A stretch of DNA of 64,000 nt from Ornithobacterium rhinotracheale (GTDB lineage: Bacteria; Bacteroidota; Bacteroidia; Flavobacteriales; Weeksellaceae), in the NCBI RefSeq assembly GCF_022832975.1, contig NZ_CP094846.1:124001-188000 (forward strand), given 5' to 3'. Of this stretch, positions 569 through 5,390 are shown in pieces. The notes beneath the pieces are model-generated. The model searched no databases and was not told the DNA's origin. It worked only from the letters and a program-made list of their open reading frames with translations. The translations under genes and the position numbers were made by a program. The number at the start of each line of letters is the position of its first letter. Position 1 is the stretch's first letter.

Positions 569-1498
569 ATGATGAAAATTCCACCACTTAAAAAAGGCGC
601 AAAAATCGGCGTGATTGCTCCCGCTGGTCGCATCAAAAAAGGCGAATTGGATTTTGCCGAAAATTGGTGCAAAACACAAGGCTGGGAACTTGTAATCCCC
701 GAAAGTATTTATGCCGAATTTGATTTAGGCTACTGGTACGCAGGCAATACAGAACATCGCTTGCAGCTTACACAAGCTGTGCTAAACGACGGTTCGCTTG
801 ATGCTATTTGGTGCGCGCGTGGTGGCTACGGCTGCGTCAAAATCATTGATGCATTGGATTTTACTCAGTTTAAAAATCAGCCAAAATACCTTATCGGGTA
901 TTCGGATATTACGGTTTTTCATAATCATTTAAACAATTTAGGGATTCCTACTTTGCACGCCGTTACGGCAAAACCACTCAATACGGAATATTCCCACGAA
1001 ACCTACCAAACGCTCATTGACGCATTGCAAGGAAAACCTTTAAAATACGATTTACCCGCCAATCAGATAAACATTTTGGGCGAAGCCAAAGGCAAACTCG
1101 TGGGCGGAAATTTATCCATCATTTACAGTCAGCTGGGGAGCCAAACGGCAATAGAAGGCGATGATTTAATCTTATTTATTGAAGACTGGTACGAAAACTG
1201 GTACCATGTCGATCGCATGCTCGAAGGGCTTAAACGCTCGGGCTTGTTCCGTCGTGTGAAAGGCGTGATTTGCGGAAGTTTTACCAAAATGGATGTGGAA
1301 GAAGAAAATGAATTTTATACCGAAAACTTTGACCCAATTGCCAATCAAGTGATTTATGAGCAAGTGAAATCGCTCGGTGTTCCTGTAGCGTTTAATTTTC
1401 CTGCGGGGCACTTTGGCGACAATCGGGCTTTAATCATGGGCGCGGAAGTCTCGTTTAAAGTTTCAGAAAAAAATACAATTTTGAATTTTCTGGGATAA
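569..1498 (+). CDS. LD-carboxypeptidase (peptidase family S66)
   Basis: Cleaves the L,D bond of murein tetrapeptides during peptidoglycan recycling, normally in the cytoplasm. The S66 triad is visible: Ser112 in GYSDIT, Glu205 in FIEDWYE and His281 in PAGHFGDN (numbered from the ATG at 569), with the conserved GGNLS segment between. Length (309 residues) fits the family. I chose ATG 569 because the in-frame GTG at 548 lies inside the cysS terminator; ATG 572 is an alternative. No signal peptide. It appears to be a single-gene unit, followed by a 218-base AT-rich gap and an island of different composition. S66 also includes microcin-immunity MccF-like enzymes, so the exact substrate is inferred. 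Confidence 0.88.
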   Translation: MMKIPPLKKGAKIGVIAPAGRIKKGELDFAENWCKTQGWELVIPESIYAEFDLGYWYAGNTEHRLQLTQAVLNDGSLDAIWCARGGYGCVKIIDALDFTQFKNQPKYLIGYSDITVFHNHLNNLGIPTLHAVTAKPLNTEYSHETYQTLIDALQGKPLKYDLPANQINILGEAKGKLVGGNLSIIYSQLGSQTAIEGDDLILFIEDWYENWYHVDRMLEGLKRSGLFRRVKGVICGSFTKMDVEEENEFYTENFDPIANQVIYEQVKSLGVPVAFNFPAGHFGDNRALIMGAEVSFKVSEKNTILNFLG

Positions 1499-1701
1499 AA
1501 TTAAACGCATCATACTCTTAGAGAAAAGATTAAATAAACTGCATACCTTGCTAAAAAATAGACTTTTTTGTAGAATGGCACGATTTTGTAATTGAATTTC
1601 AGAGAACTCTTAATCAAGAACGATAAACAATTTTAATGTAACAAAAATCATAAACATTAAAAAATCACTATATATTTTATATTTTATTAGCCAAAAATAA
1701 G

Positions 1702-1709
1702 TACTTTTG
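1702..1709 (+). promoter_or_regulatory. -7 promoter element of the Panacea operon
   Basis: TACTTTTG matches the Bacteroidota -7 consensus TAnnTTTG. The ATG at 1717 begins about 7 bases later, so the mRNA may have little or no leader. No TTTG is seen at the -33 distance. Confidence 0.55.
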
Positions 1710-1716
1710 TATTGTC

Positions 1717-2259
1717 ATGGAAAACAAAATATCTGTCCCTGAAAAGATATCTGCTTTTGAATATGTATTATACCAATTGAATGAATGGTATAAGGAGTCT
1801 TTTCCTGGAAAGGAGAATGACATCAGTATATTAAAAGCTATGAAATTGCTTTTTTTTGTTTCTATAATTAAAAACAGAGATAAGGAAGATTTATTAGACC
1901 TTTTCGACAATTTCCAAGCATGGACATATGGACCTGTTGAGGCTGATATATATAGTTCATATAGAGATTTAAATAATATTAAAATCAATCGCTTTTGCTT
2001 AAACATAACGAATAAAAAAAGTATTGAAGATTGGTCTAAAACCAATCCTATCTGGACAAATAAAATAGATGAGAGTATAGATTCCTTAAAAATAGAAAAC
2101 AAAGAAATATTAGGTTATGATGCTTTTACTCTAGTTGAGATTAGTCATTATTACTCCTCTTGGGATTTTTACTATAATGTTCTTGAAGATTCTCACTCTT
2201 CAATGAATACTGAAATTATTAGAAATGAAAGAAAATATTTCAGAAAAAATTCTATCTAG
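1717..2259 (+). CDS. Panacea-domain (SocA/DUF4065-like) putative antitoxin
   Basis: 180 residues. The N-terminal half carries the features I associate with the Panacea domain: a helix with KLLFF (residues 43-47), followed by a core ending in FQAWTYGPVEADIY (about 66-79), where the Trp-x-Tyr-Gly-Pro-Val signature is most diagnostic. Panacea proteins act as antitoxins that neutralise many unrelated toxins encoded beside them; SocA is an adaptor relative that presents its toxin to a protease. The gene overlaps the next one by 35 bases, implying coupled translation. Both are much richer in A and T than ldcA and yraN on either side, which suggests horizontal transfer. The domain call rests on motif recognition only; the role as antitoxin to the downstream protein is inference from gene order. 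Confidence 0.7.
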   Translation: MENKISVPEKISAFEYVLYQLNEWYKESFPGKENDISILKAMKLLFFVSIIKNRDKEDLLDLFDNFQAWTYGPVEADIYSSYRDLNNIKINRFCLNITNKKSIEDWSKTNPIWTNKIDESIDSLKIENKEILGYDAFTLVEISHYYSSWDFYYNVLEDSHSSMNTEIIRNERKYFRKNSI

Positions 2260-4057
2260 AATAAGAGATTTGCCAAAGATAAGGGAGGAAGATAACTCGA
2301 ATTATGACGTTTTTCTTTTGATAAAAGAAGTTAAATCTATTATTCGTTTGTTTTTTTGTTCTGTAATTGCTGGAGAGTACATTGGTAACTCTAAAATTGA
2401 AGAAAATATATCAAAATGCGCGACTCTCATAGCTGAACCTATAGAAAATCTAAATACAATATCAGACAAAAATAAATCTTTATTAGAGCTAAAAGATATT
2501 GTAGAATCTGTAAAAGACATCATTGATATATATACACTATTTATACGGGAAGTTTCAATTATTCATCAAAATGATTACGAGGATTATTTTATTGTCAGAA
2601 ACCCTTCATTTTCAAGAAAGAATAGATTAGAAACAAACTTATTTATTTCATTTCTAAATGTATCTTATTTTGATATTCAGCTGTCTGATACGAAGCGCTA
2701 TTATTCAGATCTAGAAAAAATCAAAAGAAATATAGAGGGGATGTTTGAAGGGGGGAGGTTATCTTTTTTAGCCAATGAAGTAAAAAAAATAATACTGAAG
2801 ATAAATTTTCTCCTTTTCAAATGGGAAAAACGAGCAAAAAAAGATGAAAAAAAAATAGCAAAGTACATAGATGGAAACAGGGACAGAACGACGAGTAGAG
2901 AGAGAATAACAAAAAATAAAGAATTTACAGAATTAATTAATTACATTGACAATCATTATGATGACAACAAAGATCCATTTATCATAAAGCAATGTGAAGA
3001 TTTATTGGATGATAAAAATTTTGATTTATATAACACAACAGCTAAAAATTATCATGCATTAATCAAATATTACAAAGATATTACCGATGATATAGACTCA
3101 CTAGAAAATATCGTATCTGTTATTGATTATCGAAGACAAAAAAGTAATAATGATATTATATGGGAAACAATCTACTCATATGCTAAAAATAATAGATTTT
3201 CTCTTTATGTTGAATCTTGTAAGGATAAATATAAATTAATTGAGCAATACAATGATGTTAAAAGCGATGATAAAAACTATTTTTCACAGTTTAAGACATT
3301 AAATAAAGCTCTCTTATTACTTGAGGAAGAAACTAATGACCCATCCAAAGTTAAAGATGTTCAAATGTTCATAAAGGACTATCTATCCTCTATTTATGAT
3401 GCCTATAAAAACAATATGGAATGGTCTCTGGAGCATTCTCATAAAATGCTGTACAGACTTCCTTACGAAGAATGCATGGTAGATGATATTTATGTACATT
3501 CTGGTTTTATGTTGCCCCCTCCCAATAAAGAGGCTCATGATAATTACGAAAATATTAGAAGACGATACGAAACCTTGCAAATGACAATAGAAAGTCTTAG
3601 TAAAATAACACCTATTTCTAATAATGTTAAAGAGTTAAATGACAAGATACAAAAATCAGAAGTAAAATACGTCGAATTAATAGGTTTATTTACAGCTGTC
3701 GTAGCTTTTATTATGGGAGGCGTTCAAGGATTCACTTTTGTAAAAAGTATCTGGCATGCACTTGCTTTTTTGTTTGTTTTAGCTTTTTCATTAATTTCGT
3801 TTTTACTAGTTCTCTTGCTAATTACAAGACATGACGAATCTATTCTTAGGAAAAATTGGATCTCTATTGCAATAGTTTATATTTTATTGCTGATTTTAGG
3901 TTATTATTCTATGTGTAAAATAAAAAGTGAAAAGGATAATGAGAAAAAAATAGATGAAGATAAAACAAAAACTACTGAAATAATAAATTCGCATATTCCC
4001 CCTATAGAAACTTTAGAAAAGGTAATAAAAGAGGAGGACTCTATGCGAACGAAATAA
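2225..4057 (+). CDS. Large Lys/Asp/Asn-rich protein with C-terminal membrane helices; putative Panacea partner
   Basis: 610 residues, family not recognised. Residues 1 to about 480 are charged and predicted helical with no signal peptide, so this part should be cytoplasmic. Three hydrophobic segments follow at about 483-503, 510-533 and 545-563, then a charged tail of about 45 residues. The first segment (VELIGLFTAVVAF) resembles membrane anchors found at the C-termini of several defence and toxin proteins, but I see no catalytic motif. The start lies inside the Panacea gene in another frame. Panacea antitoxins often sit directly next to their toxin, and some of those toxins are membrane-active, so a toxin or abortive-infection effector is plausible. 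It could also be an unrelated cargo gene. Confidence 0.6.
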   Translation: MKENISEKILSRIRDLPKIREEDNSNYDVFLLIKEVKSIIRLFFCSVIAGEYIGNSKIEENISKCATLIAEPIENLNTISDKNKSLLELKDIVESVKDIIDIYTLFIREVSIIHQNDYEDYFIVRNPSFSRKNRLETNLFISFLNVSYFDIQLSDTKRYYSDLEKIKRNIEGMFEGGRLSFLANEVKKIILKINFLLFKWEKRAKKDEKKIAKYIDGNRDRTTSRERITKNKEFTELINYIDNHYDDNKDPFIIKQCEDLLDDKNFDLYNTTAKNYHALIKYYKDITDDIDSLENIVSVIDYRRQKSNNDIIWETIYSYAKNNRFSLYVESCKDKYKLIEQYNDVKSDDKNYFSQFKTLNKALLLLEEETNDPSKVKDVQMFIKDYLSSIYDAYKNNMEWSLEHSHKMLYRLPYEECMVDDIYVHSGFMLPPPNKEAHDNYENIRRRYETLQMTIESLSKITPISNNVKELNDKIQKSEVKYVELIGLFTAVVAFIMGGVQGFTFVKSIWHALAFLFVLAFSLISFLLVLLLITRHDESILRKNWISIAIVYILLLILGYYSMCKIKSEKDNEKKIDEDKTKTTEIINSHIPPIETLEKVIKEEDSMRTK

Positions 4058-4098
4058 ACCGTTAAATTACCATCATTTGTTATTATTTCATCTTTTTT

Positions 4099-4464
4099 AT
4101 GGCAGAACACAACGAATTTGGCAAATTGGCAGAAAACTACGCCGCAGAGAAATACCGAAAAAATGGTTACGAAATATTAGCCCAAAATTGGTATTTTCAT
4201 CCTGCCGAAATCGACATTATTGCCAAGCGAGACAATATTTTAGCCATCGTAGAAGTGAAAGCACGCCATAGCGAAATTTTTGAAAATCCCGAAGATTCGG
4301 TAACTCGTGCCAAGAAAAAAAGGCTCATCGCTGCCGCCGATGCCTACATTCAAGAAAATGACCTAGATGTAGAATGCAGATTTGATATTGCGGTGGTAAC
4401 CAAAAATGGGCAAAAATTACATTTTAAGGTATTTACAGATGCTTTTTATGCCCACGAAATTTAA
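4099..4464 (+). CDS. yraN: YraN family (UPF0102) predicted endonuclease-fold protein
   Basis: 121 residues, typical of UPF0102. The PD-(D/E)XK fold signature is present: an N-terminal GKLAENYAAEKYRKNGY helix, then AEIDIIAKRD with Glu37 and Asp39, and VEVKAR with Glu52 and Lys54. The family resembles Holliday-junction resolvases, but its cellular role is unsettled. The TAA stop at 4462-4464 overlaps the stop of the convergent histidine kinase gene within a TTAA palindrome. Base composition returns to the local norm after the AT-rich island. Confidence 0.88.
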   Translation: MAEHNEFGKLAENYAAEKYRKNGYEILAQNWYFHPAEIDIIAKRDNILAIVEVKARHSEIFENPEDSVTRAKKKRLIAAADAYIQENDLDVECRFDIAVVTKNGQKLHFKVFTDAFYAHEI

Positions 4465-5390
4465 GCTTTTTCCAAATAAAATGAGAAGGTAGTACCCTCA
4501 CCATAAGTGCTTTCTGCCAAAATTTTCTGATTATGCGCCTCTAGAATGTGTTTCACAATTGCCAACCCAAGTCCTGAACCTCCCTGCTGACGGCTGCGGG
4601 ATTTATCGGCACGGTAAAAACGCTCAAAAATTCGTTTCATCTCCTCTGGTTTTATGCCCATTCCTGTATCGGAGATATTGATTCTGACCAAATCTTTTAC
4701 TACTTGAAACGAAACTTTTACCTCACAAGCGCGTCGCGAGTGATTAATGGCGTTTACAATTAAATTCATTAATACTTGTTCTATCTTCTCAATATCTCCA
4801 TTTACTTTAATTGGCTCATCATAAGTTTTATCGAAAATCAATTTTACATCATTATTCTCGGCTTTTATTTCTAAAAGTTCAAAAACTTCTTGCACCAAAG
4901 CAACAATATTAAATGGATAAATATCTAATTTCAGATTTCCAGATTCCAGCTCCGTGATTAAGTCTAAATCTTTCACTATATAGGTAAGTCGCTCCACCGA
5001 TTTATTGATTCGATGGAGATATTTATCGCGAATGCTTTCATCGTCTACCCCGCCCTCTATGAGCGTGAGCAAATAGCCTTGAATGGAGAAAAGCGGGGTT
5101 TTTAATTCGTGTGCCACATTTCCCACAAATTCACGACGATAGTTTTCCCGCTCGTAGAAAGTATCTAATTCGTTTGTTTTTTCAGGCAAATCAGGCGATG
5201 TGTTCACTGCAATATTTAAATGATTAGAATTTGGTTTTTCGGCATAATTTAAAGAAAAGTATATCCCTATAAATACCAAAATTAAAACCAATGCAGACAA
5301 TATTAAAGGGCTGCCTGCCATACAGTAAGCAAGCCCAGACAGCACCATCGCAAAAAACGAACTAAATGCAATTTTTTGGGGTTTCTTCAT
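4461..5390 (-). CDS. Sensor histidine kinase (PhoR-like)
   Basis: 309-residue membrane kinase. Two hydrophobic segments at about residues 8-27 and 29-47 with only a short loop between, so almost no periplasmic sensor domain. HisKA follows with phospho-acceptor His94 in AHELKTPL, then the ATPase domain with N box NLIVNAINHS (209-218), G1 DTGMGI (241-246), F box FERFYRADKS and G2 GGSGLGLA (270-277). It phosphorylates the response regulator encoded 3 bases upstream in the same operon. The architecture is that of PhoR-type kinases, but the signal cannot be read from the sequence. Confidence 0.88.
   Translation of the reverse strand: MKKPQKIAFSSFFAMVLSGLAYCMAGSPLILSALVLILVFIGIYFSLNYAEKPNSNHLNIAVNTSPDLPEKTNELDTFYERENYRREFVGNVAHELKTPLFSIQGYLLTLIEGGVDDESIRDKYLHRINKSVERLTYIVKDLDLITELESGNLKLDIYPFNIVALVQEVFELLEIKAENNDVKLIFDKTYDEPIKVNGDIEKIEQVLMNLIVNAINHSRRACEVKVSFQVVKDLVRINISDTGMGIKPEEMKRIFERFYRADKSRSRQQGGSGLGLAIVKHILEAHNQKILAESTYGEGTTFSFYLEKA

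What the first reader, a model, noticed from the sequence alone, without database searches (positions are those of the whole stretch)
1702..4057. AT-rich two-gene island: Panacea-domain antitoxin overlapping a large unknown membrane-tethered protein
The first protein has the KLLFF and W-x-YGPV motifs of the Panacea domain, known as an antitoxin that pairs with many unrelated toxins. The second (610 residues) starts inside the first gene, has a long charged cytoplasmic part without a recognisable catalytic motif and three C-terminal membrane helices. Most known Panacea toxins are small, so a partner this large would be unusual. The island interrupts ordinary housekeeping genes and differs from them in base composition. 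It could be an undescribed toxin-antitoxin or abortive-infection system.
Basis: partly seen in the sequence, partly recalled or inferred. Interest (0 to 1): 0.75.

Follow-up and report, generated by a model that had tools for sequence, protein, structure and literature searches.

The report
Panacea antitoxin with large membrane partner
Two adjacent genes in a Bacteroidota chromosome look like a travelling toxin-antitoxin pair, in which a small known antitoxin domain is tied to an unnamed large membrane protein; the same pair recurs near lysis genes in phage sequences, so it may guard cells or prophages against other phages.

Summary
ORF 1717-2259 (180 aa) is a Panacea protein (PF13274, E 3.3e-6, above cut-off). 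ORF 2225-4057 (610 aa) overlaps it by 35 nt and has no convincing match in the libraries scanned. The island (27-28% G+C) fills a gap of 38 or 19 bp in two congeners; a third has other cargo there.

The two genes belong together. In 13 of 13 evaluable chromosomal loci found with the large protein (window included; the others 19-52% identical) a Panacea gene lies directly upstream on the same strand. Four viral contigs hold the pair too. All 19 aligned partners have three hydrophobic C-terminal segments. The two protein trees agree strongly (Mantel r 0.85, 0 of 9999 permutations).

Best reading: a PanAT-type toxin-antitoxin module whose toxin is a large, mainly helical membrane protein, probably damaging the membrane when Panacea control fails, with phage defence or prophage maintenance as the role. 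Pairing, patchy spread and conservation are shown; toxicity, neutralisation, membrane damage and phage response are inferred. New variant of a known kind; the published list of 88 PanT clusters could not be consulted.

The parts
1717..2259 (+). PanA-type Panacea (SocA_Panacea, DUF4065) protein, 180 aa; predicted antitoxin
   Evidence: PF13274 E 3.3e-6 over cut-off; AlphaFold2 model pLDDT 90.5, pTM 0.89; best re-aligned PDB chain 7yk3_D, from a DarTG toxin-antitoxin entry, Z 10.2, rmsd 3.6, 143 aligned
2225..4057 (+). PanT-type partner, 610 aa; predicted membrane toxin or effector
   Evidence: Directly downstream of Panacea in 13 of 13 evaluable chromosomal loci, window included, and in 4 of 10 viral loci found through Panacea; AlphaFold2 model pLDDT 73.6, pTM 0.67, almost all helix
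2225..2259 (+). 35-nt overlap of the two genes (possible translational coupling)
   Evidence: ORF coordinates; the other 12 chromosomal loci range from 23 nt overlap to 21 nt gap, the 4 viral ones have gaps of 4-14 nt
3668..3916 (+). Three C-terminal transmembrane segments (residues 482-500, 515-533, 546-564)
   Evidence: Hydropathy, three C-terminal segments in 15 of 15 partners and in 4 of 4 viral ones; the model has helices there but with block pLDDT of 46-79
1702..1709 (+). Candidate -7 promoter box TACTTTTG, 15 nt upstream of the panA ATG
   Evidence: Match to the Bacteroidota consensus TAnnTTTG (recalled), present within 70 nt of the start in 7 of 17 loci; no shuffled control was run
1499..4098 (.). 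Inserted island between the LD-carboxypeptidase and YraN (UPF0102) genes; only the two genes inside, and no flanking direct repeat of 18 nt or more found
   Evidence: Gap of 38 bp in G298 and 19 bp in G299; repeat search of window 1000-4700

Best explanation
It is a two-gene PanAT-type toxin-antitoxin module. The small Panacea protein (PanA) binds and silences the large partner (PanT). PanT has a roughly 480-residue, mainly helical cytoplasmic part ending in a long helix, then three membrane helices. When PanA is titrated, degraded or displaced, for example by an incoming phage, PanT would be freed, assemble in the inner membrane and depolarise or permeabilise it, stopping growth or aborting infection. 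It travels on prophages and other mobile islands and serves defence or maintenance. Shown here: Panacea family membership, pairing in every evaluable locus, matching trees of the two proteins, purifying selection on both, three hydrophobic C-terminal segments, mobile or phage contexts for several copies. Inferred: toxicity, neutralisation by binding, membrane damage, phage trigger.
For: PF13274 matched at E <= 1 in 13 of 13 upstream proteins, best 8.4e-8; not all pass the cut-off (G154 scores 23.7 bits against 25.7). In none of 13 evaluable chromosomal loci found with the partner as query is the partner without Panacea; three more were not evaluable (G250 and G797 cut by contig ends, G153 a C-terminal remnant). 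Same strand, Panacea first, -35 to +21 nt apart. Trees of 17 pairs: Mantel r 0.852, 0 of 9999 permutations as high, 9 of 14 splits shared. dN 0.09-0.16 against dS 1.05-1.44 for both genes in three comparisons. Phage contexts: downstream of an amidase gene in L087 and L084 (Pfam) and L086/L094 (by eye), with an integrase further on in L086 and L084; ahead of packaging and terminase genes in L091; after holin and amidase in Riemerella columbipharyngis L001. Islands with an integrase and type III restriction-modification genes (L021) or with AbiH and a serine recombinase inside a split Mg-chelatase (comM-type) gene (L020). Published: three validated PanT toxins with predicted transmembrane segments towards the C terminus depolarise membranes (PMC8832971).
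Against: No toxicity or binding data. The partner's fold has no specific match: Foldseek against PDB found nothing at E <= 0.001, and the re-alignment gave only generic helical-repeat matches, best Z 11.2, so membrane damage rests on hydropathy and analogy. Five of 13 Panaceas have GHV for the GPV motif that PMC8832971 calls critical. Of 10 viral loci with a related Panacea, four lack this partner (L085, L088, L092, L093; L093 lies near its contig end) and one has it broken (L090). In five genomes of one genus the pair sits just after hemF and beside or near hemB, which looks long resident rather than freshly mobile. The window copy itself has no mobile gene beside it. Eight of the PanTs tested in PMC8832971 were not toxic in E. 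coli. NetFlax reports toxin-first order in 78% of Panacea loci, the reverse of this one.
Confidence: 0.58

Rival explanations
1. Superinfection exclusion rather than toxin-antitoxin: the membrane protein blocks entry or DNA injection of other phages without harming the host, and the Panacea protein regulates or chaperones it.
For: Position between lysis genes and the integrase in L086 and L084, as prophage cargo; three hydrophobic C-terminal segments in 19 of 19 partners.
Against: A roughly 480-residue conserved cytoplasmic part is more than exclusion proteins usually need (recalled); constant pairing with an antitoxin domain fits toxicity better.
Confidence: 0.15
2. A toxin-antitoxin module whose toxin acts inside the cell, for example on cell division or an enzyme, with the membrane helices only as an anchor.
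For: The residues invariant in the 19-row alignment lie mostly in the soluble part (F195, D285, N322, S326, N351, K357, W400; only F526 is in the membrane part). The Panacea toxin toxFtsL of Gelidibacter mesophilus is predicted to sit in the membrane but blocks division (PMC10440598).
Against: No enzyme family was matched convincingly; no solved structure matches by sequence profile (best E 0.43).
Confidence: 0.2
3. Co-inherited cargo with no toxin-antitoxin function: a two-gene regulatory or membrane module kept for another reason.
For: In five genomes of one genus it follows hemF directly, as if in a haem operon.
Against: Patchy presence: 8 of 320 family genomes, own and one remnant included, 8 strong hits in 299 genomes of one genus; links of some copies to phage, integrase, restriction-modification and AbiH genes.
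Confidence: 0.07

Closest known systems
PanAT toxin-antitoxin systems (Kurata et al. 2022, PMC8832971: outline, section 5 part 1 of 2, sections 6 and 12 read, other passages seen; NetFlax 2023, PMC10440598: section 11 part 1 of 2 read, other passages seen)
   Same: Stand-alone Panacea protein, two-gene locus under 100 nt apart, phage and mobile links, membrane-anchored partner
   Different: Partner of 596-667 aa in full-length members against a 281-aa toxin called relatively large; the pair stays together over the 17 loci compared, with no other toxin partner identified in this lineage, though some related viral Panaceas lack the partner
PanT of Helicobacter sp. 13S00482-2 (PMC8832971, passages)
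   Same: C-terminal transmembrane helices after an N-terminal coiled-coil-like region; depolarises the membrane
toxFtsL of Gelidibacter mesophilus (PMC10440598)
   Same: Panacea-neutralised, membrane-located toxin; Gelidibacter is a Flavobacteriaceae genus (recalled)
   Different: 281 aa with a GAF domain; GAF is not among the Pfam rows of these partners
DarTG, chain 7yk3_D
   Same: Fold match of the Panacea model, Z 10.2
   Different: No DarT family was matched by the partner; which part of DarG this chain is was not checked

Membership tests
PanAT (Panacea) toxin-antitoxin | Panacea domain in the antitoxin | tested here: met
   PF13274 over cut-off in the window; matched at E <= 1 in 13 of 13, not all over the cut-off
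[quoted passage not shown]
   13 of 13 evaluable loci, -35 to +21 nt; criteria from PMC8832971
PanAT (Panacea) toxin-antitoxin | No conserved operon longer than three genes | tested here: met
   By eye, neighbours differ between loci; only the copies of one genus share hem neighbours
PanAT (Panacea) toxin-antitoxin | GPV signature motif | tested here: met
   YGPV in the window; GPV in 8 of 13, GHV in 5 of 13
PanAT (Panacea) toxin-antitoxin | Toxin stops growth, antitoxin rescues, proteins form a complex | not testable with these tools
   Needs expression and pull-down
SocAB (type VI) | SocA equivalog | tested here: not met
   NF047745 32.3 bits against a cut-off of 190
SocAB (type VI) | SocB toxin and ClpXP-dependent degradation | not tested
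   No SocB comparison was run; degradation needs an experiment
CBASS-type 2TM membrane effector | Match to a PADLOC 2TM effector model | tested here: inconclusive
   Weak hit in L044 (E 0.0034), none in L091 or L013, none in the window at E <= 10; the other homologues were not scanned with PADLOC

The most novel reading that the evidence does not exclude
The large cytoplasmic part is itself a phage sensor: PanA and the helical domain together form a tripwire, and a phage protein that binds either opens a membrane pore built from the three C-terminal helices. This would be a Panacea-gated, self-sensing abortive-infection channel spread by prophages and other islands.
Probability: 0.2. Interest if true: 0.75.

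Novelty: new variant of a known kind. Interest (0 to 1): 0.55.

Why it matters
Panacea is known for pairing with many unrelated toxins and is suspected of being a sensor. Here is a Panacea lineage that has stayed with one large membrane partner over distant Bacteroidota loci and phage contigs. It is a natural place to ask what Panacea senses, how it holds a membrane toxin, and what a 480-residue cytoplasmic domain adds. The partner family has no name in the libraries scanned.

Tried and rejected
Tried without result: the partner in plasmids and phages by tblastn with the window, L007 and L086 partners and the L045 partner in phages only: no match at the limits set (E 0.001 to 0.1). Partner alignments against viral contigs: no relative confirmed; the viral copies came first through the Panacea alignment, so their pairing is a biased sample and is not in the 13 of 13. 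A later scan with the L086 partner gave only three contigs already held. PDB sequence searches with the partner and Panacea alignments and with a typical Panacea: nothing useful. Fold search of the partner against PDB: nothing at E <= 0.001. One viral model, A0A8S5VY37 (634 aa, E 7.7e-6), could not be named; a paper search for it found none. Panacea on its own in 316 family genomes: 43 with a match, 48 places; among the 30 loci returned, with 1.5 kb flanks, none holds this partner.

Rows dropped: four weak hits in the other genus (G648, G651, G758, G905; E 1.6e-4 to 9e-4), each covering at most 146 model positions around the membrane part, with no Panacea-profile hit in the fetched flanks; G153, a C-terminal remnant without Panacea; the broken viral copy L090/L096. 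L001 and L003 are the same Riemerella contig and are counted once.

Considered and rejected: orphan-ORF artefact (both genes conserved over 13 loci); MFS transporter (one sub-threshold hit on the membrane part); SocA equivalog (far below cut-off).

Limits: the A5 model was built from the 13 linked Panaceas, so their high scores against it are by construction. An independent sign that they are divergent is that the five partner-linked Panaceas listed are the five weakest of 48 PF13274 rows. The tree comparison did not correct for host phylogeny. The transmembrane count is a hydropathy scan with thresholds of 1.4 and 1.6, not a trained predictor.

Novelty searches: 'Panacea domain' (3 papers), DUF4065 plus membrane (7), Panacea plus toxin terms (6), SocA/Panacea/phage/defence (31 with three terms, 20 listed), Bacteroides plus prophage plus toxin-antitoxin plus DUF4065 (0). 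Supplementary tables and most subscription papers could not be read, so the pair may sit unnamed in a published cluster list.

Full report
What is there. The window holds two overlapping plus-strand genes at 1717-2259 (180 aa) and 2225-4057 (610 aa). The first is a Panacea (SocA_Panacea) protein by Pfam (E 3.3e-6, 28.4 bits, cut-off 25.7). Its AlphaFold2 model is confident (pLDDT 90.5, pTM 0.89). The best re-aligned solved structure is 7yk3_D, from a DarTG toxin-antitoxin entry (Z 10.2, rmsd 3.6, 143 aligned; the next entry scores 3.7). The second protein has no convincing family in Pfam, PADLOC, NCBIfam or PHROGs.

The site. In congener G298 (flanks 95% and 88% identical) the LD-carboxypeptidase and YraN genes are 38 bp apart, and in G299 19 bp apart. 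G300 carries other cargo in the same gap: an aspartyl-protease ORF and, read by eye, a Fic-like remnant. The simplest reading is a gain in this lineage at a variable spot. No direct repeat of 18 nt or more bounds the island. The two ORFs have G+C of 0.274 and 0.279, against a mean of 0.363 for 62 window ORFs.

Relatives. The partner was found in 8 of 320 genomes of the family (own included), 4 of 395 of the order (own included), 12 of 299 of one other genus (unnamed, probably Flavobacterium; 8 strong, 4 weak and dropped), and 2 of 395 and 2 of 262 in two phylum-wide samples, both times only the window's genome and G432. These samples overlap. One named relative is Riemerella columbipharyngis (53% identical). 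Of the 16 distinct chromosomal copies, window included, 13 show the sequence upstream and all 13 have a Panacea gene there on the same strand, with PF13274 matched at E <= 1 in 13 of 13 though not always over its cut-off (G154). Two are cut by contig ends (G250, G797) and one is a C-terminal remnant without Panacea (G153).

Phage copies. Searching viral contigs with the Panacea alignment gave 10 loci. Four have a full-length partner next door (612-646 aa; partner-profile E 3e-45 to 7e-49), one has a broken partner (L090), one ends at the Panacea gene (L089), and four show no partner (L085, L088, L092, L093). In L087 and L086/L094 the pair lies one to three ORFs after an amidase gene (Pfam in L087, by eye in L086), and in L086/L094 an integrase follows; in L084 amidase, pair and integrase occur in that order with other genes between; in L091 DNA-packaging and terminase genes follow. 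The Riemerella copy likewise follows a holin and an amidase. This is a usual place for prophage cargo (recalled). The hosts of these contigs were not identified.

Other contexts. G177 (L020): a roughly 10 kb island with a serine recombinase and AbiH that splits a Mg-chelatase (comM-type) gene. G057 (L021): an integrase and a type III restriction-modification pair. G013 (L004, L018): the pair sits at the 3' end of lepA with a 97-bp direct repeat, so that the partner's frame runs into a second copy of the lepA end. In five genomes of the other genus (G432, G745, G910, G743, G760) the Panacea gene starts 32-36 nt after hemF and the partner lies beside hemB (three) or a few genes from it (two); G797 shows the hemB side only (by Pfam hemF and hemB in L013, hemF in L047 and hemB in L049; the others by eye).

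Anatomy of the partner. AlphaFold2 on a 15-sequence alignment gives pLDDT 73.6 and pTM 0.67. The cytoplasmic part is almost entirely helical, a long helix spans 434-476, and the membrane end is poorly modelled. Three C-terminal hydrophobic segments appear in 15 of 15 homologues and 4 of 4 viral ones. Residues invariant in the 19-row alignment are F195, D285, N322, S326, N351, K357, W400 and F526. Fold searches give only generic helical-repeat matches and one unnamed viral protein of 634 aa (E 7.7e-6).

Evolution. For 17 pairs the two protein trees correlate (Mantel r 0.852, 0 of 9999 permutations as high; 0.823 for the 13 chromosomal pairs) and share 9 of 14 splits. Host phylogeny was not corrected for. 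Both genes are under purifying selection (dN 0.09-0.16, dS 1.05-1.44, the latter near saturation). Published Panaceas swap partners often (PMC8832971, section read), so this lineage is notable for staying with one partner. But some viral contigs carry a related Panacea without it (L085, L088 and perhaps L092, L093), so the faithfulness is not absolute.

Mechanism. Validated PanTs include three membrane depolarisers with predicted transmembrane segments towards the C terminus, one of them after a coiled-coil-like region. By analogy, PanA holds PanT inactive and PanT damages the inner membrane when released. NetFlax authors propose that Panacea is a sensor. A phage trigger is plausible from the contexts but not shown.

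Known or new. It meets the sequence-level definition of a PanAT locus; growth, rescue and binding tests are open. It is not the SocA equivalog. The partner family is unnamed in the libraries searched, but Dataset S1 of the Panacea paper lists 88 toxin clusters that could not be read here. I therefore call it a new variant of a known kind.

Noticed in passing
L004:745-841 and 3212-3308 (G013): 97-bp direct repeat (98%) of the lepA 3' end flanks the two-gene unit, with no integrase inside; the partner frame reads into the second copy, giving a LepA_C hit. It suggests insertion at a gene end, mechanism unknown.
   Followed up: partly
L026:6460-10400 (G300): Same chromosomal spot in a congener: aspartyl-protease ORF and a Fic-like remnant (by eye) between LD-carboxypeptidase and YraN, and a PDDEXK_4 nuclease (PADLOC PDC-S26) on the other side of the LD-carboxypeptidase gene.
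   Followed up: partly
L020:5400-17490 (G177): Mg-chelatase (comM-type) gene split by an island of about 10 kb with serine recombinase, resolvase, AbiH and the Panacea pair.
   Followed up: partly
L013, L043, L046, L047, L048, L049: Six of eight strong copies in one genus lie beside or a few genes from hemB, five of them with hemF visible just upstream of the Panacea gene; recurrent site or old resident not resolved.
   Followed up: partly
L085:7998-8558 and L088:7890-8525: Viral contigs (146 kb and 43 kb) with a Panacea of the same broad lineage but no large membrane partner.
   Followed up: no
window:20423-23720: Run of six tandem genes all containing nearly the same signal-peptide start (MKNLFL...), several of low G+C; look like exported paralogues.
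   Followed up: no
window:53956-54354: Low-G+C (0.248) ORF that reads like a helix-turn-helix regulator (by eye), the lowest in G+C of the 62 ORFs compared.
   Followed up: no
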